Source: Akkermansia muciniphila (GTDB taxonomy: Bacteria > Verrucomicrobiota > Verrucomicrobiia > Chthoniobacterales > Chthoniobacteraceae). From it: a stretch of DNA of 47,056 nt. The position numbers were made by a program, and so were the translations under genes. Shown here piece by piece: positions 2-22,006 of this stretch (positions are counted from its first letter, which is position 1; the number at the start of each line of letters is the position of its first letter). The stretch is from contig CAMCYN010000003.1 of assembly GCA_945883955.1 (NCBI GenBank), positions 1 to 47,056 on the forward strand, given 5' to 3'. The notes under the pieces are model-generated. The model was not told the DNA's origin. It made no database searches and worked only from the letters and a program-made list of their open reading frames with translations.

Positions 2-649
2 GCCTCTCAATTGACTCGTTCCAATGTCACCGGAACCGCTTTCTCCACTTACACGGTGCGTGTGGCGGATTCGACCAATGCGGGAGCGGCGGTCGAAGTG
101 TCGGCAACGTTGTCCGAGCGAACCCTACAAAGCCCGACGACGGAGTCGGTGGCGACCGACTACACCAAGTGGTGGGTGTATTGGGTGGAGGGTGTGGCTG
201 ATAATCCGGCCGACAACCGCTATGGCTACTGGATCTCTGAGCGTCTCGTCAACCAGACGAGTGGCGCGGTCACGGCCGGGCGTTCCGCCTGGGTATTGAG
301 TGATTCGTCCGGAAACGTGACCTCCGACACCTGGCTTGCTGCTACTCAACAGGTGCAGGAAGAGGCAGAGAATACTCGCAGTGAGTTCTCCGTGATCGCA
401 AACCGTACCGCCGGAGCGAACCTTGATACCTTCGTCATCAGCGGACGTGTGGAGACCGACGGGGAAGCGGCGGTTTACGGAGCCCCAGACCAAATTGAGG
501 GTGAATACAAAGTAGGCACGTTATTGGAACTGGATTTGAGCTGGGACATCGAAATGACCCTGGAGGCTGGTGATGCGGACCTGGACGCGGTAGTTGGAAT
601 CTTGTCCTCTGCGCTGCAAGCAGCTTCTGAGGCTCCGGCTGGAGACTAA
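2..649 (+). CDS. Hypothetical protein, 5' end outside the window
   Basis: The reading frame is open from the left edge of the window to a TAA at 647-649, so about 215 C-terminal residues are visible and the true start is probably upstream. The visible part is acidic and rich in Ser, Thr, Ala and Val, with alternating hydrophobic/polar stretches that suggest beta structure, including a WWVYWVEG segment and a DLSWDIEM segment. It ends in an Ala-rich acidic tail. I recognise no family. No membrane segment or cysteine is visible in this part. A strong intrinsic terminator follows 22 bases after the stop, so this is the last gene of its transcript. A TTG at position 11 could serve as a start, but the frame remains open upstream of it, so I treat the gene as truncated by the window edge. 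Confidence 0.6.
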   Translation, partial: ASQLTRSNVTGTAFSTYTVRVADSTNAGAAVEVSATLSERTLQSPTTESVATDYTKWWVYWVEGVADNPADNRYGYWISERLVNQTSGAVTAGRSAWVLSDSSGNVTSDTWLAATQQVQEEAENTRSEFSVIANRTAGANLDTFVISGRVETDGEAAVYGAPDQIEGEYKVGTLLELDLSWDIEMTLEAGDADLDAVVGILSSALQAASEAPAGD

Positions 650-11527: not shown

Positions 11528-12079
11528 CTAACGAGCATTGAGTGCTTTTTCGATCGCAGTTTTGAGTTCTGCGTCATCGGGTTCCGTGCCGGACGGAAAC
11601 CGTGCGGTGGGCACTCCATCCCGGCCGATCAAAAACTTGTTGAAGTTCCATTTTACCGGTCCTGGGAATGGGGAGGCGGGGCCAGTGAGTCCTGCAAAGA
11701 GCGGGTGTGGCTGGTTTCCAAGGATTTTCACCTTGGCGAACATTGGGAAGGTCACTTTGTATTTGGAGGAGCAAAACGCCTGGATTTGTTTATCGTCACC
11801 GGGTTCCTGAGCGCCAAAGTCGTTACAGGGGAAGCCGAGAACTACGAGTCCGCGATCTTTATAGGCTCGATAGAGTGCTTCCAGTCCTTCGTATTGGTTG
11901 GTGTACCCGCACTCGCTGGCGACATTGACCACAAGCAGCACCTTGTTGGCGAAGGCGCCCAAATGTGTTTCTTTGCCTTGGATATCCGTGACCGGAATGC
12001 CCATCAGATCCGGAGCTGAAGCGGCGTGAAGGCTGGTTATCAACAGTGGAAAGGTTAGGAGGAAGAGTCGGCGATTCAT
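11528..12079 (-). CDS. Exported glutathione peroxidase-family thiol peroxidase
   Basis: Reduces H2O2 and organic or lipid hydroperoxides with thiol donors, usually thioredoxin in Cys-type bacterial members. The 183 residues begin with a Sec signal peptide (MNRRLFLLTFPLLITSLHAA), so it acts outside the cytosol. The catalytic tetrad is visible: Cys57 in ASECGYTNQY, Gln91 in GFPCNDFGAQEPG, and Trp144-Asn145 in KWNFNKFL. The extra Cys85 in GFPCNDFG lies near Gln91; it is the usual second Cys position in two-Cys GPx proteins of the thioredoxin-dependent type only if structure agrees. It starts 12 bases after the stop of the DEAD-box helicase gene, so the two probably share a transcript. Confidence 0.93.
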   Translation of the reverse strand: MNRRLFLLTFPLLITSLHAASAPDLMGIPVTDIQGKETHLGAFANKVLLVVNVASECGYTNQYEGLEALYRAYKDRGLVVLGFPCNDFGAQEPGDDKQIQAFCSSKYKVTFPMFAKVKILGNQPHPLFAGLTGPASPFPGPVKWNFNKFLIGRDGVPTARFPSGTEPDDAELKTAIEKALNAR

Positions 12080-14008: not shown

Positions 14009-14998
14009 ATGTCGACGGAAAGCAAACCCACCCCAGTCAACCTTGTGTCCAGATGCCTGATTACGGTCCGGCAATGGTTCGATTCAGACTACTTTCCCGA
14101 GGGAGCCGAGGTGGTGCGCCAACGCCCGGAACGCTTTGAACCGCGCCGGTGTTTGCCTTTTGTTTTTCTACATCTGGGATGTCTGGGAGTCGTTTGGACC
14201 GGCTGGAGCTGGACGGCGGTGGTAGTGGCGGCGGCACTCTATTTTGTGCGGATGTTTGCCATTACGGGATTTTATCACAGGTACTTTTCCCATAGGAGTT
14301 TCCATACTTCCAGGTGGATGCAGTTTATCTTCGCCGTAGTAGGAAATACTTCCGTGCAGCGCGGCGCGCTCTGGTGGGCTTCCGTTCACCGCCACCACCA
14401 CAAGCATTCTGATCAACCCGAGGATGCGCACTCGCCCCGAATCAGCGGCTTTATCTGGTCCCACATTGGCTGGATGACCAGTAGCAAAAATTTCCCCACC
14501 AATTATGACTCCATCCGGGATCTGGCGAAGTTCCCGGAATTAGTGTTTCTTAATCGTTTTGATTTGGTGGTGCCTGCAATCTTCGGAGCCGCCCTCTACG
14601 TGGCGGGGGCTCTGCTGGCTCGCTTCGCCCCAGGGCTTGAAACCACTGGAGGGCAGCTGTTTGTCTGGGGCTTCTTTGTAAGCACGGTGATATTGCTTCA
14701 TGGAACGTTGTTCATCAATTCGATGGCTCATGTCATTGGCGGTCGGCGGTTTGAAACTCAGGATGACAGCCGGAATAACCTCATTTTGGCTCTGATTACG
14801 CTAGGCGAGGGGTGGCATAACAATCACCACCGTTACATGTCTTCGGCCCGACAGGGCTTTTATTGGTGGGAGGTGGATATTACCTACTACTTGCTTAAAG
14901 GGCTTGCTGCCATGGGACTTGTGTGGAACCTGCGTGCGGTGCCTGACAGTATATATTCCGAGGCCGAAGCCGTTCTGAAGGCTAAAGAAGCGGTCTGA
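14009..14998 (+). CDS. Membrane acyl desaturase (fatty acid desaturase, three His boxes)
   Basis: A di-iron membrane desaturase of 330 residues that inserts a cis double bond in an acyl chain (acyl-CoA or phospholipid substrate not resolved), using O2 and an electron donor. The three histidine boxes are HRYFSH (residues 90-95), HRHHHKH (128-134) and HNNHH (near 270). Hydrophobic segments lie near 52-88, 185-235 and 285-300. The layout is that of stearoyl-CoA-type delta-9 desaturases. ATG 14009 is chosen; a GTG three codons earlier is possible. It starts the operon that ends near 21985: only 14 bases separate it from the FAD protein. The place at the head of the operon suggests it supplies the unsaturated chain that the downstream enzymes modify. 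Confidence 0.9.
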   Translation: MSTESKPTPVNLVSRCLITVRQWFDSDYFPEGAEVVRQRPERFEPRRCLPFVFLHLGCLGVVWTGWSWTAVVVAAALYFVRMFAITGFYHRYFSHRSFHTSRWMQFIFAVVGNTSVQRGALWWASVHRHHHKHSDQPEDAHSPRISGFIWSHIGWMTSSKNFPTNYDSIRDLAKFPELVFLNRFDLVVPAIFGAALYVAGALLARFAPGLETTGGQLFVWGFFVSTVILLHGTLFINSMAHVIGGRRFETQDDSRNNLILALITLGEGWHNNHHRYMSSARQGFYWWEVDITYYLLKGLAAMGLVWNLRAVPDSIYSEAEAVLKAKEAV

Positions 14999-15012
14999 GG
15001 CCAGTTCTGCCT

Positions 15013-16284
15013 ATGAAGAAGCTGGCGATTATAGGCACTGGGATTTCAGGTCTCGGTTGCGCTCATTTCTTACAGAAGCGCTTCGATCTGACGCTCTATG
15101 AACAGAACGATTACACGGGCGGCCATACCAATACGATCACCGTCGATGAGGCCGGTCGCCCCGTGTCGCTCGACACGGGGTTCATGGTTTATAATGAGGT
15201 CACCTATCCGAATCTAACCCGTCTCTTCCGGGAACTCGATGTGGCGACCAAGCCGACGGACATGTCGTTTAGTGTGCAGCACCTCCCTACGGGTCTGGAA
15301 TACAATGGAACGAGTCTGGATTTGCTTTTTGGGCAACGGCGAAACCTCTTGAACCCCCGATTCTGGAAGCTGCTAGCCACGATTAACCGTTTCAATAACG
15401 AGGCGGTTCCGGCACTGGAGGACTCTCGTTATGCCGAGATGAATTTACGCGAGTACGTGGCGGATCGCGGATACGGAACCGACTTGCTAGAGCGCTATCT
15501 CGTTCCCATGAGCAGTGCTGTCTGGTCGACGCCGCCCGAACTGATGCTCGAGTTTCCGGCCACGACTCTGCTGCGCTTCTGGCACAATCACGGGTTCCTC
15601 GGGCTTCAAACCCAGCATCCTTGGCGCACGGTTGTGGATGGATCGCGCTCTTATGTGCATAAGATGATCGCGCCCTTTAAAGGTCGGATCCAGTTGGGGC
15701 GAAAGGTGATGCAGGTTTCTCGTGTCGGAAACAAAGCCGTGATTACCTGCGCGGACGGGACAGTAGCAGAATTCGACAAAGTCATTCTGGCCTGTCATGG
15801 CGATCAGGCCCTGCAATTGCTCGCCGATCCTACGGAGCTTGAGCGGAGGCTTTTGTCAAAATTTCACTACCAACCCAATTCCGCGACGGTGCACCGGGAC
15901 TGCTCGGTAATGCCGCGTACCCGACGGTGTTGGGCTTCCTGGAATTACCGGATAGGGAACAAACCTGATGGCCCAGTTGCCCCAACCATCCACTACTGGA
16001 TGAACCGTCTGCAAGGAGTGTCCGAGAACGAAAATTATTTTGTCTCGCTCAATGCAGAGGCGGAGGTAAATCCCGACTCGGTGCTAAGACGGATTCAGTA
16101 CGACCATCCGCTGTTTAATTGCGCCGCGATCGCTGCCCAGAAAGAGTTGCCTGAGCTCAACAACCTCTCACCACACCAGGCCACTTACTACAGCGGGGCC
16201 TGGTTCAAGTATGGCTTCCACGAAGATGGTTTCACGAGCGCCATAGAGTGTGTTCGGGCCATTACCCAAGAAACGATATGGTAG
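15013..16284 (+). CDS. COG2907-type FAD-dependent oxidoreductase, candidate fatty-acyl oxidase/desaturase
   Basis: 423 residues of the amine-oxidase/phytoene-desaturase-like flavoprotein group. The N terminus MKKLAIIGTGISGLGCA has the GxGxxG dinucleotide loop, followed by LTLYEQNDYTGGHTNT with the ribose-binding acidic residue and the second Gly pair. A VSLDTGFMVYNEVTYPNL segment and a HPWRTVVDGSRSYV segment match this group. Genes of this type are found next to DUF1365 and cyclopropane-synthase-like genes across bacteria. In Rhodobacter sphaeroides such a neighbourhood makes furan fatty acids, with UfaD desaturating the methylated chain and UfaO adding oxygen; I cannot state from memory which of the two this protein matches. 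Its TAG overlaps the ATG of the DUF1365 gene by seven bases. Confidence 0.88.
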   Translation: MKKLAIIGTGISGLGCAHFLQKRFDLTLYEQNDYTGGHTNTITVDEAGRPVSLDTGFMVYNEVTYPNLTRLFRELDVATKPTDMSFSVQHLPTGLEYNGTSLDLLFGQRRNLLNPRFWKLLATINRFNNEAVPALEDSRYAEMNLREYVADRGYGTDLLERYLVPMSSAVWSTPPELMLEFPATTLLRFWHNHGFLGLQTQHPWRTVVDGSRSYVHKMIAPFKGRIQLGRKVMQVSRVGNKAVITCADGTVAEFDKVILACHGDQALQLLADPTELERRLLSKFHYQPNSATVHRDCSVMPRTRRCWASWNYRIGNKPDGPVAPTIHYWMNRLQGVSENENYFVSLNAEAEVNPDSVLRRIQYDHPLFNCAAIAAQKELPELNNLSPHQATYYSGAWFKYGFHEDGFTSAIECVRAITQETIW

Positions 16285-17123
16285 CGCGGGCCATCTGCTC
16301 AGTCGGCATCGATGGCAAAGCGGGGCAGCAGTCCTGCTTGTACGAGTGCAAGGTGATGCATCACCGGCTGACACCGAAGGATAATCGCTTTAGTTACCGG
16401 ATTTTCCTCTTCTGCATCGACCTGGATGAAATTGATACTGTGACCTCCAGAGTCGCGGGATTCAGCCATAATCGCTGGAACCTATATAACTTTCGCGATC
16501 GGGATCACCTGACTGTGATCGAAGGCGGGAGTGTTAAAGAGAATCTGATCGCTTATTTGGCACAGAATGGAGTGAGTTTTCCGGAGCAAGGGCGGGCCAT
16601 TCTTGTGACTTTGCCCCGAGTGCTCGGATATATTTTTAATCCGGTGTCGTTCTATTTTTGTTTCGATGCACAAGGGTCTCCTGTTTGCGCCGTAACGCAG
16701 GTGGGTAACACTTTCGGGGAAATGAAACCCTATCTTTTAGCGCTCCCCCCGGTGAATGGGGTTTTTCGGTTGATCACGCCTAAGCATTTTTACGTATCGC
16801 CGTTCTCTGCCCTCGATCTGGAGTTTGATTTCAAGCTTCGGGTCCCAGGCGAGCATCTGGAAATCCATATTGACGACTGCCAGGGGGAGGATCGGGTGTT
16901 GTTAAGCGCGCTGACTGGGCAACGAGTGCCTCTGACGACGGCCCGCCTTGCGTGGCTGACCCTCAAATATCCGTTGATCACGCTAAAGGTCATTTTTTTG
17001 ATACATTGGCATGCCTTTCTGCTCTGGGTCAAAGGGTTGCCATTTCATTCCAAGGCCGCTAATCCGCATTTGCAGCGCAACGTGCTCAATCCCCACGCCT
17101 CCATCGCCAAAGAAACGTCATGA
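16278..17123 (+). CDS. DUF1365 (COG3496) protein of the fatty-acid modification operon
   Basis: 281 residues. DUF1365 landmarks: QQSCLYECKVMHHRLTPKDNRFSYRIFLFCIDLDEI near the N terminus, LPRVLGYIFNPVSFYFC (near residue 114), and a KHFYVSPF segment (near 170). No signal peptide. DUF1365 proteins almost always sit beside a COG2907 flavoprotein and a Cfa-like methyltransferase, as here, and have been implicated in furan fatty acid synthesis in alphaproteobacteria, but the chemistry of the fold is unclear. ATG 16278 overlaps the upstream stop (ATGGTAG), and its own TGA overlaps the next ATG (ATGA), so translation is coupled on both sides. An ATG is not found further upstream in a family-like context. 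Confidence 0.88.
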   Translation: MVARAICSVGIDGKAGQQSCLYECKVMHHRLTPKDNRFSYRIFLFCIDLDEIDTVTSRVAGFSHNRWNLYNFRDRDHLTVIEGGSVKENLIAYLAQNGVSFPEQGRAILVTLPRVLGYIFNPVSFYFCFDAQGSPVCAVTQVGNTFGEMKPYLLALPPVNGVFRLITPKHFYVSPFSALDLEFDFKLRVPGEHLEIHIDDCQGEDRVLLSALTGQRVPLTTARLAWLTLKYPLITLKVIFLIHWHAFLLWVKGLPFHSKAANPHLQRNVLNPHASIAKETS

Positions 17124-18397
17124 ACGAAACTGCTACGGTTGCCTCAACGCCAACGGAACGGGGGGCAAATTCTCCGGCTGGCCTTTATCAGGCACTGGTG
17201 TTGCGGGTACTTGAGAAAATGGTTCACGGGCACTTGCGCCTGGAATTGCCGGATGGCCGGATTCGCGAGTTTGGCATTCCGGGTGTACGCGTGAGCGCTC
17301 GGATCCGGGTTCGAAACCCGATGTTTTTTCAAAAGTGTGTCCTTTTTGGGGACGTTGGGTTCGGGGAATCCTATGTCGACGGAGATTGGGATACCGAAAA
17401 CATCGAGCGTGTGATCGCTTGGGCGATTGAAAATGTAGACCACACCCCGTCGATGTCGGGCGCTAAAGCTCGAGCGCTGATGTTCAACCTGTTAAAGAGT
17501 TACAACAAGTTGCAGCACTGGTTGCGGCCCAATAGTCTGTCTACGAGCCGGCGGAACATTGCCGAACATTACGATCTCGGAAACGAGTTCTATCGCCTCT
17601 GGCTCGATCCCACTATGACCTATTCCAGCGGACGGTATACTCTTCCTGGGCAGTCTCTGGAGAGTGCCCAGATTGCGAAATACGACGCGCTTTGCCAAAA
17701 GTTGCGGATTCGCTCAACGGATCACGTTTTAGAGATCGGGAGCGGATGGGGCGGCTTTAGTGTTCACGCGGCCAGGAACTACGGTTGCCGGGTGACGACT
17801 GTCACAATTTCTGAGGAGCAGTTTAAATTAGCTAAACAACGTTTTGCGGAGGAGGGGTTAGCTGGCCGGATTGAGATTCTGTTGCTGGACTACCGTCATC
17901 TTTCGGGAAGGTTTGATAAAATAGTTTCGATCGAGATGATGGAGGCGCTTGGAGACCGGTATTTAGAGACCTATTTTTCCAAGATTAACGAGCTCCTTAA
18001 GCCGAACGGGCTAGTTGGTTTGCAGTTTATCACTGTTCCCGATTCCCGGCATGCAGAGTTGCGCAAGGGGGTGGACTGGATTCAAAAGCATATCTTTCCA
18101 GGCTCCCTACTTCTAAGCCTTGGCCGGGTAAACCGGGCGTTAAACCGAACGGGAAATCTTACATTACACGAACTCGAGGATCTTGGCGCTTCCTATGCAA
18201 AGACGCTTCATGTTTGGTGGGAACGTTTTAATAAGCAGTTGGACGCGGTAGCGGCGCTTGGGTTTGACGAGCGCTTCGTCCGAAAGTGGAATTATTATCT
18301 ACAGTATTGCGAAGCCGCCTTTGCGTCCCGGAACATCACTGTGGTTCAGGGGATTTATACCCGCCCGAATAATTCCGACTTACACACGATTTATTAG
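17120..18397 (+). CDS. Cyclopropane-fatty-acyl-phospholipid synthase homologue, probable chain methylase
   Basis: 425 residues of the Cfa family: SAM-dependent enzymes that transfer a methylene or methyl to the double bond of a phospholipid acyl chain. The N-terminal domain has VRVSARIRVRNPMFF and FGESYVDGDWD; the catalytic domain has HYDLGNEFYRLWLDP, the SAM loop VLEIGSGWGG (203-212) and TVTISEEQ. Aligned by eye with E. coli Cfa, the bicarbonate ligands are Cys139 to Ser170, Glu239 to Glu275, His266 to Gln302, Ile268 to Ile304 and Tyr317 to Tyr359. Loss of the Cys and His suggests that bicarbonate, the base for ring closure, is not bound as in Cfa, pointing to methyl-alkene rather than cyclopropane product, as for UfaM. 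ATGA coupling to the DUF1365 gene. A 125-base gap follows. Confidence 0.88.
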   Translation: MNETATVASTPTERGANSPAGLYQALVLRVLEKMVHGHLRLELPDGRIREFGIPGVRVSARIRVRNPMFFQKCVLFGDVGFGESYVDGDWDTENIERVIAWAIENVDHTPSMSGAKARALMFNLLKSYNKLQHWLRPNSLSTSRRNIAEHYDLGNEFYRLWLDPTMTYSSGRYTLPGQSLESAQIAKYDALCQKLRIRSTDHVLEIGSGWGGFSVHAARNYGCRVTTVTISEEQFKLAKQRFAEEGLAGRIEILLLDYRHLSGRFDKIVSIEMMEALGDRYLETYFSKINELLKPNGLVGLQFITVPDSRHAELRKGVDWIQKHIFPGSLLLSLGRVNRALNRTGNLTLHELEDLGASYAKTLHVWWERFNKQLDAVAALGFDERFVRKWNYYLQYCEAAFASRNITVVQGIYTRPNNSDLHTIY

Positions 18398-18522
18398 TGT
18401 GAGCTAATGGCTCCTCGTTCTCTCATGAATTCGAAATCTCATATCCAGCCACCTCTGTTTGAGGCGCGGGGCGGCGACAAAGCTTGCGGGGTGAACCCGC
18501 CCTGCCCAACTCGGGGGGCGCG

Positions 18523-18861
18523 ATGATCTGGTTTTTGCGAATCGCGTTTGCCCTCGTGATGGTCGCGATGCTTGCAGTGACAAGCTGGGCCAGCACCTTT
18601 GTCGCGCTATGGGAGATCCCGAAGTCCGTCTATGCGCATCCGTGGTTTATTGCGACGTTGTTTGATACGTATTTTGCCTTCCTTACCTTTTACGTGTGGG
18701 TTGCCTACAAGGAAACCTCTGCCCTTGCTCGGTTCCTGTGGCTGATAGCGATCCTGCTTCTGGGGAATATTGCCATGGCCGGTTACATGCTCTGGAAACT
18801 CTGCCAGCTTCCACACAATGCCCGGATGGACGAACTGCTTTTGCGGAGTCCTAAAAAATGA
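18523..18861 (+). CDS. DUF1475-like small membrane protein
   Basis: 112 residues with three predicted membrane helices: near 3-25 (FLRIAFALVMVAMLAVTSWAS), 38-58 (around FIATLFDTYFAFLTFYVW) and 65-90. The pattern fits DUF1475, a short membrane family of unknown function. An ATG at 18523 begins directly at the first helix; open sequence to 18484 adds only a non-hydrophobic stretch. Its TGA overlaps the ATG of the DUF2062 gene. It occupies the place that other small membrane proteins (for example DUF2878 types) hold in proteobacterial operons with COG2907, DUF1365 and Cfa, which hints at a shared membrane role, but this is inference. Confidence 0.75.
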   Translation: MIWFLRIAFALVMVAMLAVTSWASTFVALWEIPKSVYAHPWFIATLFDTYFAFLTFYVWVAYKETSALARFLWLIAILLLGNIAMAGYMLWKLCQLPHNARMDELLLRSPKK

Positions 18862-19358
18862 GCATGCTCAATGGGAGCCCTCAAGTTGAGCGGGAGTCAG
18901 TCTGGAGGAGGCGGTTCCTCAATCCGGTGGTAAAGCAAATGCGTACGGGTATTACGCCAGAAAAAGTAGCTCTCTCCATAGCGCTTGGAGTGACCTTTGG
19001 TGTTTTCCCGATCCTCGGCTCCACTACTTTGCTGTGTGGATTTGCAGCCTGGTTTCTTCGTCTCAACCAGCCGATTATCCAACTGGTCAACTGTCTGGTG
19101 TACCCCCTGCAGATTGCTCTATTATTGTTGTTTTACCGGGCTGGTGAGTCGCTTTTTGGCAAGGACCATACCTCACTTTCCATCTCGCTGCTGACAGAGC
19201 AATTCAAGGCTGATCCAGCGGAGTTTTTCAAAAGCTTTGGCCTGATTGGACTTCAGGGGATTGTTGTGTGGCTATTGTCTGCGCCTCTCCTGATCGGTCT
19301 GGTTTACCTCATCTTGCGCAGGCCTTTGCGTGTCCTTGCGTCGCGTGTTTCGGCCTGA
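18858..19358 (+). CDS. DUF2062 membrane protein
   Basis: 166 residues. The DUF2062 signature is clear: a basic N terminus, GITPEKVALSIALGVTFGVFPILGSTT (residues 32-58) and a second half with NQPIIQLVNCLVYPLQIALL. Membrane helices are predicted near 40-70, 75-97 and 128-155. DUF2062 proteins are linked to envelope and lipid functions in various bacteria, but the activity is unknown. It starts inside the DUF1475 stop (ATGA overlap) and ends 7 bases before the DUF1295 ATG, so it is part of the same operon. Confidence 0.85.
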   Translation: MSMLNGSPQVERESVWRRRFLNPVVKQMRTGITPEKVALSIALGVTFGVFPILGSTTLLCGFAAWFLRLNQPIIQLVNCLVYPLQIALLLLFYRAGESLFGKDHTSLSISLLTEQFKADPAEFFKSFGLIGLQGIVVWLLSAPLLIGLVYLILRRPLRVLASRVSA

Positions 19359-19365
19359 TTCTTCT

Positions 19366-20172
19366 ATGTTTGCGCTCCTCGGTTTCGGCACCCTTCTGTG
19401 TATTGTCTCGTTCGCCATCATCTGGGCCTTGTGCGTGCGTGTGAAGAATTACAGTTTTCTGGATGTCGCCTTTTCATACGGATTAGCGATTCTGGCTCCG
19501 CTTTACGCGTGGAACGGATCCGGGAGTTTTGAGCGCAAGTTCTCCTTCACCGTGCTGGGAGTGATCTGGAGTTTACGGCTTGGCACTTACATTTTGCTTC
19601 GCGTTGTACGCCATCATCCCGAGGAGGACTCGCGCTACCAGGCGTTGCGAGACCGCTGGAAGGGGCCGTGGATGTTCCTTCTCTTTTTTGAGATGCAGGC
19701 GGTTCTGGTCCTCATCTTTTCACTCCCGTTTTTTCTCGCTGCCTTTAACGAATCGCCTGGACTTCGTCCTGTTGAACTCATCGGCTTAGCGCTGGCCGCG
19801 CTGGCACTTGTCGGGGAGGCAACCGCGGATTGGCAGATGCAGCAGTTTAAAAAGAATCCTGATGGCCGGGGTCAAGTTTGCCAGGTTGGGCTTTGGAATT
19901 ATTCCAGGCACCCGAACTATTTTTTTGAATCCATGGTGTGGTGCGGATTTTCCGTGGCGGCGTTCGGGTCATCCTGGGGGTGGATCTGTCTGGTTTGCCC
20001 TCTTCTGATGTTTTACTTTCTGCTTCGTGTGACCGGTATCCCGCTCACAGAAGAATATGCCCTCAAAAGCAAAGGCGACGCCTACCGCGAGTATCAACGG
20101 ACCACGAGCGCTTTCGTTCCGTGGTTTAAGAAAGCTTCCGGAACCTCGCATGAATCCTCTTCCCTCTCATGA
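19366..20172 (+). CDS. DUF1295 integral membrane protein (steroid 5-alpha-reductase/ICMT-like)
   Basis: 268 residues with about seven membrane helices. The C-terminal half carries the DUF1295/steroid-reductase-like motif set: [34 protein letters not shown] (near residues 155-188), then [31 protein letters not shown]. The Arg-His-Pro-Asn-Tyr core is the one used for NADPH or SAM handling in 5-alpha-reductases and isoprenylcysteine methyltransferases. In a lipid operon it could reduce a double bond or methylate a lipid-linked group; the sequence does not decide. ATG 19366 is chosen; a GTG at 19330 inside the previous gene would add 12 residues. Its TGA overlaps the ATG of the following methyltransferase. 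Confidence 0.88.
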
Positions 20173-21215
20173 TCTCGATAGACCAACTGCTTGAAACCAA
20201 TGCTGTTCCGGACGCACTAATTCGCGTTGGAATCCGTCGTTTACTGCGCGAGACCCTTCAGGAAAAGCGGCGATCCAATGTGGAGACGCGACGTGCGGCA
20301 TTGCTGGAGCATATCGCCGGTCTCAAACAAAGCCCGATTGCGATCCAGACCAAATCGGCTAACGAGCAGCACTACGAAGTCCCGACCCGGTTCTACCAAC
20401 TGGCTTTGGGGAAGCGGCTAAAATATAGCTCTGGATATTGGGACGCGACCGTGAACTCCCTCGATCAGGCGGAGGAGCGGATGCTGGCTTTGACGTGTGC
20501 TCGGGCGGAATTGAAGGGTGGGCAACGTATTTTGGAGCTCGGATGCGGCTGGGGGTCTCTTTCGCTCTGGATGGCCGAGCATTATCCCGAGGCGCAGATT
20601 ACGGGAGTGTCGAATTCCCGGACGCAAAAGGAGCACATTGATGCGGAAGCGAAGCGGCGTGGATTAACCAATCTGACCATCATTACCGCAGATATGAACG
20701 TGTTTGAAATTGCCCGGGGATTCGACCGGGTGGTTTCTGTGGAGATGTTTGAGCATATGAAGAATTATCAGGTGCTCATGAAAAAGGTTTCCGGCTGGTT
20801 GAACCCTGGCGGGAAACTCTTCGTGCATATCTTCACGCATCGTGAAGTGGCGTATCATTACGAAGACCGGGGCCCGTCTGACTGGATGACGCGGTACTTT
20901 TTTGCGGGCGGCCAAATGCCCAGTGACGACTTGTTGCTCTATTTTCAGGACGATCTCCGGATTGAACAACACTGGGGCGTTTGCGGTACCCATTACGCGA
21001 AGACCGCCGAAGCCTGGCTGGACAACATGGACGCGAATCGGGAGGAAATATGGCCACTGTTTGCCGCAACTTATGGTGAGGCGCAGACCAGGCGTTGGTG
21101 GGTTTACTGGCGGGTCTTTTTTATGGCGTGTGCCGAGCTGTGGAACTTCAAGGATGGCGAGGAGTGGATTGTTTCTCATTACCTGTTCGTTAATCCCAAT
21201 CCTGCGACAGCCTGA
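20169..21215 (+). CDS. Second Cfa-superfamily SAM methyltransferase (coclaurine N-methyltransferase-like)
   Basis: 348 residues. SAM-binding [20 protein letters not shown] is at 121-140 and [12 protein letters not shown] at 189-200. The segment [25 protein letters not shown] (238-262) is close to plant coclaurine N-methyltransferases and their bacterial relatives rather than to E. coli Cfa. By-eye mapping to the Cfa bicarbonate site gives Ser88 for Cys139, Glu195 for Glu239, His220 for His266 and Phe222 for Ile268. The enzyme is thus a methyltransferase distinct from the product of 17120-18397. In Rhodopseudomonas palustris a second methylase, FufM, adds a methyl to a furan fatty acid; this is a candidate counterpart by operon logic only. 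ATGA coupling to the DUF1295 gene. Confidence 0.88.
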
Positions 21216-21229
21216 CACCGCTGCGTTTG

Positions 21230-21985
21230 ATGAACCCGATACCCTTTATTCTGTGCCTTTCGTTTTCGACTGCGTTCACGCTGGCGGCGGGGAATGGAGT
21301 GGGAGACTTGATCAAAAAGGGCGATACCCTTGATGGGCAACTCAAGACGGCAGCCGCTTTGGCTGTTTATCTGGAGGCAGAGAAACTCGAGCCGGACAAC
21401 GTGGAAATTCTTCAGCGGCTAGCCAAGTCGTATGACGAATCGATGGTGGATACGACCTCCAGGGAGGAGCAACGTCGGCTGGCCGAGTTGGGAATGAGCT
21501 ACGCAAAACGGGCTGTTGCGATTGATCCCAAGAATGCCAAGGCGCAGCTGTCGATGGCCATTACGTATGGGCGGCTCGCCCCTTACCTGGATAGCAAAAC
21601 CAAAATTGCGTATTCAAAATTGGTGAAAGAGCATGCGGAAAAAGCTCTTGCGATTGATCCTTCTTGTGACTACTCCCACCACGTACTCGGAGCGTGGAAT
21701 TACGAACTCGCCAATCTCAACCCGATTTTGAAGGCGTTGGTGAAGCTTATCTACGGGGGATTACCGGCGGCTTCCATGGAACAGGCCGAAGCTCATTTTC
21801 TAAAAGCCGTGGCTCTGGCTCCCCAGAGAGTATCCCATCACATTGAACTTGGCCGGACTTATGCCGCTTTGAAAAAGAAGGATTTGGCTCGAGAGGAGTT
21901 AAACAAAGGGCTGGCTTTGCCGAGTCGCGAAAAAGATGACCCTTCGACCAAACAAAGGGGACGAGATGCGCTCTCGAACCTGTAA
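21230..21985 (+). CDS. Exported TPR-repeat protein, RMDN-like
   Basis: 251 residues. MNPIPFILCLSFSTAFTLAAG is a Sec signal peptide without a lipobox Cys at the cleavage point. Tetratricopeptide-type helical pairs follow: AAALAVYLEAEKLEPDN, EILQRLAKSYDESM, YAKRAVAIDPKNAKAQ, HAEKALAIDPSCDYSHH, AEAHFLKAVALAPQRVSHH and AREELNKGLALP. The motif order resembles the regulator-of-microtubule-dynamics (RMDN)-type TPR proteins found in many bacteria. A TTG directly before the ATG is not needed. It ends the lipid operon, 14 bases after the second methyltransferase, and a small terminator follows. It could scaffold periplasmic partners, which is inference. Confidence 0.82.
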   Translation: MNPIPFILCLSFSTAFTLAAGNGVGDLIKKGDTLDGQLKTAAALAVYLEAEKLEPDNVEILQRLAKSYDESMVDTTSREEQRRLAELGMSYAKRAVAIDPKNAKAQLSMAITYGRLAPYLDSKTKIAYSKLVKEHAEKALAIDPSCDYSHHVLGAWNYELANLNPILKALVKLIYGGLPAASMEQAEAHFLKAVALAPQRVSHHIELGRTYAALKKKDLAREELNKGLALPSREKDDPSTKQRGRDALSNL

Positions 21986-21987
21986 AC

Positions 21988-22006
21988 GGCAGCACTGCTG
22001 CTTTTT
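21988..22006 (+). terminator. Short Rho-independent terminator of the lipid operon
   Basis: GCAGC (21989-21993) pairs with GCTGC (21997-22001) around ACT and runs directly into TTTTT. It starts 3 bases after the TPR stop. The stem is short but GC-rich. Confidence 0.55.

What the first reader, a model, noticed from the sequence alone, without database searches (positions are those of the whole stretch)
14009..21985. Candidate verrucomicrobial operon for furan or methyl-branched membrane fatty acids
Nine same-strand genes with 14-bp gaps and ATGA overlaps encode an acyl desaturase, a COG2907 FAD protein, a DUF1365 protein, a Cfa-like methylase, DUF1475, DUF2062 and DUF1295 membrane proteins, a second Cfa-superfamily methylase and an exported TPR protein. 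In Rhodobacter sphaeroides and Rhodopseudomonas palustris the enzymes UfaM, UfaD and UfaO make furan fatty acids on phospholipid chains and FufM adds a second methyl. This operon has matching enzyme types plus its own desaturase, and adds three small membrane proteins I cannot place in the known pathway. I know of no description of such a pathway in this phylum.
Basis: partly seen in the sequence, partly recalled or inferred. Interest (0 to 1): 0.82.

Follow-up and report, generated by a model that had tools for sequence, protein, structure and literature searches.

The report
Furan fatty acid operon, extended version
A nine-gene bacterial operon very likely makes ring-bearing antioxidant (furan) fats in the cell membrane by a pathway whose enzymes were worked out in two purple bacteria, and it points to two uncharacterised protein families as likely partners of that pathway.

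Summary
The operon is real and the furan reading is well supported. Genes 2-4 match UfaD-UfaO-UfaM of two Rhodopseudomonas palustris strains in order and at 37-39% identity; the second methylase is FufM-type, 46-47% identical, in one fully supported clade of 66. In 288 genomes of the phylum, FufM-type occurs only with UfaO (53 of 53; UfaO in 64). DUF1295 directly precedes FufM in 38 of 53 loci and in nine of nine Rhodopseudomonas. It is a steroid-reductase relative, perhaps reducing conjugated or oxidised furan-pathway lipid (inferred). The desaturase resembles stearoyl-CoA desaturase, so furan positions may differ from 9M5/9D5 (inferred). No genome has ChrR over its cut-off. Proteobacteria carry similar operons, so this is a variant, not a new kind. 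The product is untested; a cotton homologue with the same active-site change makes cyclopropanes.

The parts
14009..14998 (+). Acyl-CoA (stearoyl-CoA-type) desaturase, likely supplier of the cis-monoene
   Evidence: PF00487 80.5 bits; best solved match Acyl-CoA desaturase 1, 4ymk, E 3.8e-30
15013..16284 (+). UfaD-type FAD-dependent methyl-alkenoyl desaturase
   Evidence: PF01593; 38.6% and 38.2% identical to UfaD of two R. palustris strains
16278..17123 (+). UfaO-type furan-ring-forming protein (DUF1365)
   Evidence: PF07103 E 5.4e-76; 37.6% and 36.6% identical to R. palustris UfaO
17120..18397 (+). UfaM-type SAM-dependent acyl methylase
   Evidence: PF02353; 38.4% and 38.8% identical to R. 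palustris UfaM; in a 60-row UfaM group, support 96; Gln at E. coli Cfa His266
18523..18861 (+). DUF1475 small membrane protein
   Evidence: PF07343 42.5 bits, cut-off 22.3; 21 of 21 genomes over cut-off are UfaO- and FufM-positive
18858..19358 (+). DUF2062 membrane protein
   Evidence: PF09835 54.6 bits; in 21 of 53 FufM loci
19330..20172 (+). DUF1295 membrane protein, steroid-reductase relative
   Evidence: PF06966 223 bits, Steroid_dh 35.8 bits over cut-off 22.6; with UfaO in 58 of 59 genomes; directly before FufM in 38 of 53 loci
20169..21215 (+). FufM-type SAM-dependent methylase (second ring methyl)
   Evidence: Best solved match coclaurine N-methyltransferase, E 1.5e-80, 274 bits against 108 for Cfa; 46-47% identical to R. 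palustris FufM; FufM clade support 100
21230..21985 (+). TPR protein with a hydrophobic N-terminus, probably exported
   Evidence: TPR models and RMD1-3 54 bits; directly in the FufM locus in 13 of 53 genomes

Best explanation
The operon is a self-contained pathway for methylated, probably dimethylated, furan fatty acids built on phospholipid acyl chains. The desaturase makes a cis-monoene. UfaM methylates it with SAM and shifts the double bond. UfaD oxidises the product to a methyl-branched conjugated diene. UfaO closes the furan ring with O2. FufM adds the second ring methyl. DUF1295 is a membrane enzyme of the pathway, most likely an NAD(P)H-dependent reductase of a conjugated or oxidised furan-pathway lipid rather than a step of ring synthesis. 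DUF1475, DUF2062 and the TPR protein are accessories. Shown here by sequence: orthology, gene order, co-occurrence. Shown in other organisms (PMC7380195): the UfaM, UfaD, UfaO and FufM reactions. Inferred: that these reactions occur here, the DUF1295 role, and from the stearoyl-CoA-type desaturase, furans such as 7M5/7M7 and 7D5/7D7 in place of 9M5/9D5.
For: Best-match orthology to R. palustris UfaD, UfaO, UfaM and FufM and the same D-O-M order. FufM and UfaM clades. FufM-type only in UfaO genomes, 53 of 53 of 288; strong DUF1295 58 of 59; DUF1475 21 of 21. DUF1295-FufM adjacency in 38 of 53 loci of the phylum, nine of nine Rhodopseudomonas and five of five plasmid loci inspected. UfaO and UfaM are one open frame in 12 loci. 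In Chlamydomonas, DUF1365, DUF1295, CFA1 and CFA2/coclaurine-N-methyltransferase-like genes are induced together by singlet oxygen under SAK1 (PMC4067076, passages).
Against: No lipid data. Cotton GhCPS1, which shares the Gln at His266 and has an N-terminal FAD domain, makes cyclopropanes (PMC3132707, passages). DUF1295 is not confined to the pathway: of 14 control genomes it rings in Caulobacter, Lactococcus and Methanosarcina while DUF1365 rings in Caulobacter alone; in 190 alphaproteobacteria 71 of 93 UfaO genomes lack strong DUF1295. Six of 64 UfaO genomes of the phylum lack it, and one genome has it without UfaO. One alphaproteobacterial genome (G323) has FufM and DUF1295 without a UfaO match. 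fufM alone sufficed in R. sphaeroides, so DUF1295 is not needed for that step.
Confidence: 0.72

Rival explanations
1. The operon makes cyclopropane or simple methyl-branched membrane lipids: the Cfa-like protein cyclopropanates or methylates, a reductase such as DUF1295 saturates the methyl-alkene, and the other genes tune this.
For: Cotton synthases with an N-terminal FAD domain make cyclopropanes although GhCPS1 has Gln for His266. In G048 and G172 UfaM, DUF1295 and a desaturase lie together, apart in strand from UfaD-UfaO.
Against: UfaO and FufM have no place in such a pathway, yet FufM occurs only with UfaO in 53 of 53 genomes. The window enzymes' nearest tested bacterial relatives make furans (PMC7380195). 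Agrobacterium homologues gave no cyclopropane in yeast.
Confidence: 0.13
2. Furan pathway as above, but DUF1295 is a membrane methyltransferase (carboxyl or phospholipid methyltransferase kin) and not a reductase.
For: The DUF1295 profile matches isoprenylcysteine carboxyl methyltransferase 4a2n at 2.8e-4, slightly better than steroid reductase 7c83 at 6.3e-4; Pfam PEMT 25.2 bits against cut-off 25.
Against: Steroid_dh is the better Pfam relative, 35.8 bits against cut-off 22.6; ICMT is below its cut-off. The stretch SRHPNYF is invariant in 32 sequences; its PNY is shared by 7c83 and not by 4a2n in the printed alignments.
Confidence: 0.25
3. Only the monomethyl furan is made; the second methylase acts on another lipid or small molecule, as its coclaurine-type plant relatives do.
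For: Its best solved relatives are plant N-methyltransferases of alkaloids.
Against: R. palustris FufM, proven on furan lipid, is in the same clade at 46-47% identity; the family is confined to UfaO genomes in this phylum.
Confidence: 0.1

Closest known systems
R. palustris RPA2571-2569 (ufaD-ufaO-ufaM) with RPA0924 (fufM); Lemke et al. 2020, PMC7380195
   Same: All four enzymes, order D-O-M; DUF1295 directly before FufM in the R. palustris strains examined
   Different: There the fufM pair lies apart from ufaDOM in the strains examined; here one operon with a desaturase, DUF1475, DUF2062 and TPR gene
R. sphaeroides ufaM (RSP2144) and RSP1091-1087 under sigmaE-ChrR
   Same: UfaM, UfaD, UfaO
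   Different: 9M5 only, fufM supplied from outside in the paper; ChrR-controlled, while no ChrR passes its cut-off in this phylum
Acinetobacter piscicola plasmid locus NZ_CP048660 (L006)
   Same: desaturase-UfaD-UfaO-UfaM-DUF1295-FufM in the same order
   Different: No DUF1475, DUF2062 or TPR gene
Plant CPS/AtUFAMD1, AtUFAO1, AtFUFM1 (PMC10940516, PMC3132707, passages)
   Same: Homologues of UfaM, UfaD, UfaO and FufM; Gln at His266 in cotton GhCPS1 and GhCPS3
   Different: Plant fusion is FAD domain with Cfa domain; some loci of this phylum fuse UfaO with UfaM instead; GhCPS1 and 2 make cyclopropanes
Steroid 5-alpha-reductases (SRD5A2 7bw1; bacterial 7c83)
   Same: DUF1295 shares the C-terminal module with PNY motif
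   Different: Weak similarity over about 75 residues; substrate unknown

Membership tests
Bacterial furan fatty acid pathway (UfaM/UfaD/UfaO) | UfaD, UfaO and UfaM orthologues | tested here: met
   Best matches to R. palustris, 37-39% identity; UfaM group
Bacterial furan fatty acid pathway (UfaM/UfaD/UfaO) | Gene order ufaD-ufaO-ufaM | tested here: met
   Same order in window and two R. palustris strains
Bacterial furan fatty acid pathway (UfaM/UfaD/UfaO) | Furan acyl chains in membrane lipids | not testable with these tools
   Needs lipid analysis
Bacterial furan fatty acid pathway (UfaM/UfaD/UfaO) | Control by the sigmaE-ChrR pair (R. sphaeroides) | tested here: not met
   TIGR02451 over cut-off in 0 of 288 genomes; 34 have sub-cut-off, mostly partial matches, the window's genome none. 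Not treated as defining for the chemistry
FufM (dimethyl furan step) | Membership of the FufM clade | tested here: met
   66-row clade, support 100, includes R. palustris FufM-type genes; 46-47% identity
FufM (dimethyl furan step) | Methylates 9M5-type furan | not testable with these tools
   Needs enzyme assay
Cyclopropane fatty acid synthase | Bicarbonate-site residues Cys139, Glu239, His266, Ile268, Tyr317 (as listed in PMC3132707) | tested here: not met
   Window UfaM has Ser, Glu, Gln, Ile, Tyr; but GhCPS1 with Ser and Gln makes cyclopropanes, so not decisive
Steroid 5-alpha-reductase superfamily (DUF1295) | Steroid_dh profile over curated cut-off | tested here: met
   35.8 bits, cut-off 22.6
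Steroid 5-alpha-reductase superfamily (DUF1295) | Reductase fold and NADPH/catalytic pocket | tested here: inconclusive
   Single-sequence model mean pLDDT 51, not used; profile also matches a carboxyl methyltransferase

The most novel reading that the evidence does not exclude
DUF1295 is a membrane NAD(P)H enedione reductase that recycles spent furan lipids. Oxidation turns the furan ring into an unsaturated 1,4-diketone (dioxoene). DUF1295 reduces its double bond, as its steroid-reductase kin reduce an enone, giving a saturated 1,4-diketone that can re-close to the furan by dehydration, so that the membrane furan is a regenerable antioxidant. DUF1475 would be a membrane partner of the same pathway in bacteria and plants.
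Probability: 0.12. Interest if true: 0.87.

Novelty: new variant of a known kind. Interest (0 to 1): 0.6.

Why it matters
Furan fatty acids are membrane antioxidants; the paper read here worked out their bacterial enzymes in two alphaproteobacteria (PMC7380195). The survey suggests that about a fifth of sampled genomes of this phylum (64 of 288 with UfaO, 53 of these with FufM-type) may make them, without ChrR. It ties two uncharacterised families to the pathway: DUF1295, and DUF1475, whose only two papers in the held library are maize and rice studies (listing). That gives direct deletion tests in bacteria and candidate genes in plants and algae, and a prediction of furan position set by the operon's own desaturase.

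Tried and rejected
Structure predictions of DUF1295 (mean pLDDT 51) and UfaO (47) from single sequences were too poor to use; no fold search was run. The predictor's stated rule admits only window proteins or loci from certain tools, so I sent no protein of the surveyed genomes. DUF1295 was sought in viral contigs and not found. DUF1475 has no match on 72,556 plasmid records at E 0.01. I first took Gln at the Cfa His266 position as a sign of a non-cyclopropane product; the cotton paper removed that and it is kept as a lineage mark only. The idea that DUF1295 serves only the FufM step was rejected because 7 of 11 UfaO-positive FufM-negative genomes of the phylum have it and fufM alone works in R. 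sphaeroides. Composition shows no island: operon bins 0.52-0.54 G+C, window 0.51-0.58. Scans: 4 promoter-like sites against 5.7 in shuffles; 16 terminator-like against 11.5 (sd 3.1), one of them at 21987-22000 just after the last gene. Literature: 'furan fatty acid' with 'Verrucomicrobi' gave five papers, seen as listing only, about gut, rumen or dietary studies; with 'operon' none; DUF1295 gave 14 papers, of which only PMC4067076 was opened; at least two of DUF1365, DUF1295, DUF1475, COG2907, COG3496, COG3752 gave two papers. A 2025 Halomonas paper on cfa and ufaM was seen in a listing only. The first-pass neighbourhood table, which hid genes in overlapping frames, was replaced.
Full report
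OBSERVATION. The nine + strand genes are present and Pfam finds their families over cut-off. Spacing is as described except for a 125-bp gap between the Cfa-like gene and DUF1475. No NCBIfam model reaches its curated cut-off for any of the nine in the rows shown (25 of 28 rows shown for gene 8).

IDENTITY OF THE ENZYMES. Lemke et al. 2020 (PMC7380195; abstract, sections 8-10 and passages seen) proved UfaM, UfaD (FAD protein), UfaO (DUF1365) and FufM in R. sphaeroides and R. palustris. To test membership I reached 11 named genomes (10 Rhodopseudomonas, one Rhodoblastus) through a light-harvesting peptide. A FufM-type protein 46-48% identical to window gene 8 is in 9 of 11; R. rhenobacensis has only a distant Cfa-like match and Rhodoblastus none. 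UfaD is in 10 of 11. Against R. palustris XCP and JSC-3b the window proteins score UfaD 38.6 and 38.2%, UfaO 37.6 and 36.6%, UfaM 38.4 and 38.8%, FufM 46.7 and 46.5%, DUF1295 34 and 36%, each with its counterpart as best match. XCP has three Cfa-like paralogues, one beside UfaD-UfaO, as the paper describes for CGA009 (RPA2569, RPA3082, RPA0924). CGA009 itself was not identified among the genomes held, so RPA numbers are assigned by inference.

TREE AND ACTIVE SITE. A tree of 128 sequences (segments covering more than 60% of a model; shorter ones dropped) puts 66 FufM in one group (support 100) and 60 UfaM, the window's included, in another (96), apart from E. coli Cfa and the third R. palustris paralogue; these two are long branches and their pairing is unsure. 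At the bicarbonate site of E. coli Cfa, His266 is Gln in 60 of 60 UfaM, while 66 of 66 FufM keep His and have Phe for Ile268. Cotton GhCPS1 shares the Gln and makes cyclopropanes (PMC3132707, passages), so this marks lineage, not product. The second methylase's best solved relatives are coclaurine-type N-methyltransferases, 274 bits against 108 for Cfa; the first methylase's are Cfa enzymes. Arabidopsis FufM-like LIME1 is 37.9% identical to FufM (PMC10940516, passages).

SURVEY OF THE PHYLUM. In 288 genomes drawn from the phylum: FufM-type (E up to 1e-40) 53; DUF1365 64; DUF1295 72 at E up to 1e-3, of which 59 at E below 1e-20, my threshold; DUF1475 23 at 1e-3, 21 over cut-off, the other two being FufM-positive G102 and UfaO-negative G156. 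FufM is in UfaO genomes in 53 of 53; strong DUF1295 in 58 of 59 (exception G146), with 6 UfaO genomes lacking it; DUF1475 over cut-off in 21 of 21. Fisher values are below 1e-14 but take no account of kinship. Seven of 11 UfaO-positive FufM-negative genomes have DUF1295, so it is not tied to the second methylation. Among 14 control genomes DUF1365 rings in Caulobacter only, DUF1295 in Caulobacter, Lactococcus and Methanosarcina: DUF1295 has other uses elsewhere.

GENE NEIGHBOURHOODS. For all 53 FufM genomes I read a surrounding stretch (52 loci of 5-20 kb, and the window), and 26 further stretches around DUF1365: the 11 FufM-negative genomes and 15 FufM-positive ones where the two genes lie apart. 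DUF1295 directly precedes FufM in 38 of 53; DUF1475 is in the locus in 20, DUF2062 in 21, TPR in 13, UfaD and UfaO on the same strand within 8 kb in 36. Nine of nine Rhodopseudomonas FufM genes and five of five plasmid loci inspected, out of 294 plasmid records with a match (Burkholderia, Acinetobacter, Rhizobium, Cupriavidus, Mesorhizobium), have DUF1295 directly before FufM. In 12 loci UfaO and UfaM are one open frame; five were checked with Pfam and all five have both domains.

OUTSIDE THE PHYLUM. In 190 alphaproteobacteria UfaO is in 93 and strong DUF1295 in 26, together in 22 (p 9e-5), but 71 UfaO genomes lack it. In 80 of 97 eligible genomes FufM is in 8: 8 of 26 with DUF1295 and 0 of 54 without; one of the 8 (G323) has no UfaO match, and one is R. 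palustris XCP itself. In Chlamydomonas DUF1365, DUF1295, DUF2177, CFA1 and CFA2 (in another table of that paper called coclaurine N-methyltransferase) are SAK1-dependent singlet-oxygen genes (PMC4067076, passages). A later review says that furan modification there was under study (PMC8491031, passages).

MECHANISM. Steps from monoene to dimethyl furan follow PMC7380195. The desaturase matches mammalian acyl-CoA desaturase. If it is delta-9 and downstream regiochemistry is as in Rhodobacter, the ring should span C8-C11 (7M5 or 7M7, then 7D5 or 7D7); this is inference. DUF1295: Steroid_dh over cut-off, SRHPNYF invariant in 32 sequences, weak profile matches to carboxyl methyltransferase and steroid reductases. 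It is not needed for FufM activity in R. sphaeroides. RPA0923, next to fufM by number, is probably DUF1295; its deletion strain appears only in the strain and plasmid tables of the main text. Furan fatty acids are oxidised to dioxoenes (PMC12595405, passage). A reductase of such an enedione would give a 1,4-diketone that can re-close to a furan (general chemistry, recalled). This recycling idea is the boldest reading left open and is untested.

REGULATION. In R. sphaeroides these genes answer to sigmaE-ChrR (PMC6852236, passages; PMC7380195). No genome of 288 here has ChrR over its cut-off; 34 have sub-cut-off matches, several FufM-bearing genomes of family f11 among them matching the C-terminal half; the window's genome has none. 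Some loci of family f25 start with an ECF sigma gene, so other switches are likely.

VERDICT. A furan fatty acid operon in a new lineage and an extended form. The enzymes are of known kinds; what is added is the link of DUF1295 and DUF1475 to the pathway, its spread in the phylum, and the desaturase-based prediction.

Noticed in passing
L070, L091, L094, L095, L098, L099, L104, L105, L110, L112, L113, L118: UfaO and UfaM are fused in one open frame in 12 loci of the phylum; five were confirmed with Pfam. Plants fuse the FAD and Cfa domains instead.
   Followed up: partly
window 18523-18861; PF07343 matches: Bacterial DUF1475 homologues of one unit match either the first half (e.g. G155 4-116) or the second half (window 127-233) of the 236-position Pfam model, as if the model, which I recall as a plant family, were a tandem duplication of the bacterial unit.
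   Followed up: partly
window 11528-12079 (-): An ORF that reads like an exported glutathione peroxidase (by eye, no search) lies two genes upstream on the other strand.
   Followed up: no
L081-L083, L085, L086, L089 and L076, L087: Chalcone-isomerase-like genes (PF16036, two checked), NTF2-like and lipocalin-like genes lie in furan loci of families f23 and f25, as in proteobacterial loci.
   Followed up: partly
L164, L185, L197: Light-harvesting alpha chains 67-75% identical to R. palustris occur on contigs of MAGs titled Eremiobacterota, Gemmatimonadetes and Myxococcales: transfer or mis-binning.
   Followed up: no
G121:C1:1259206-1259891: DUF1295 matches as two overlapping pieces in this UfaO-positive genome, as if frame-split; counted as one strong hit.
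   Followed up: no
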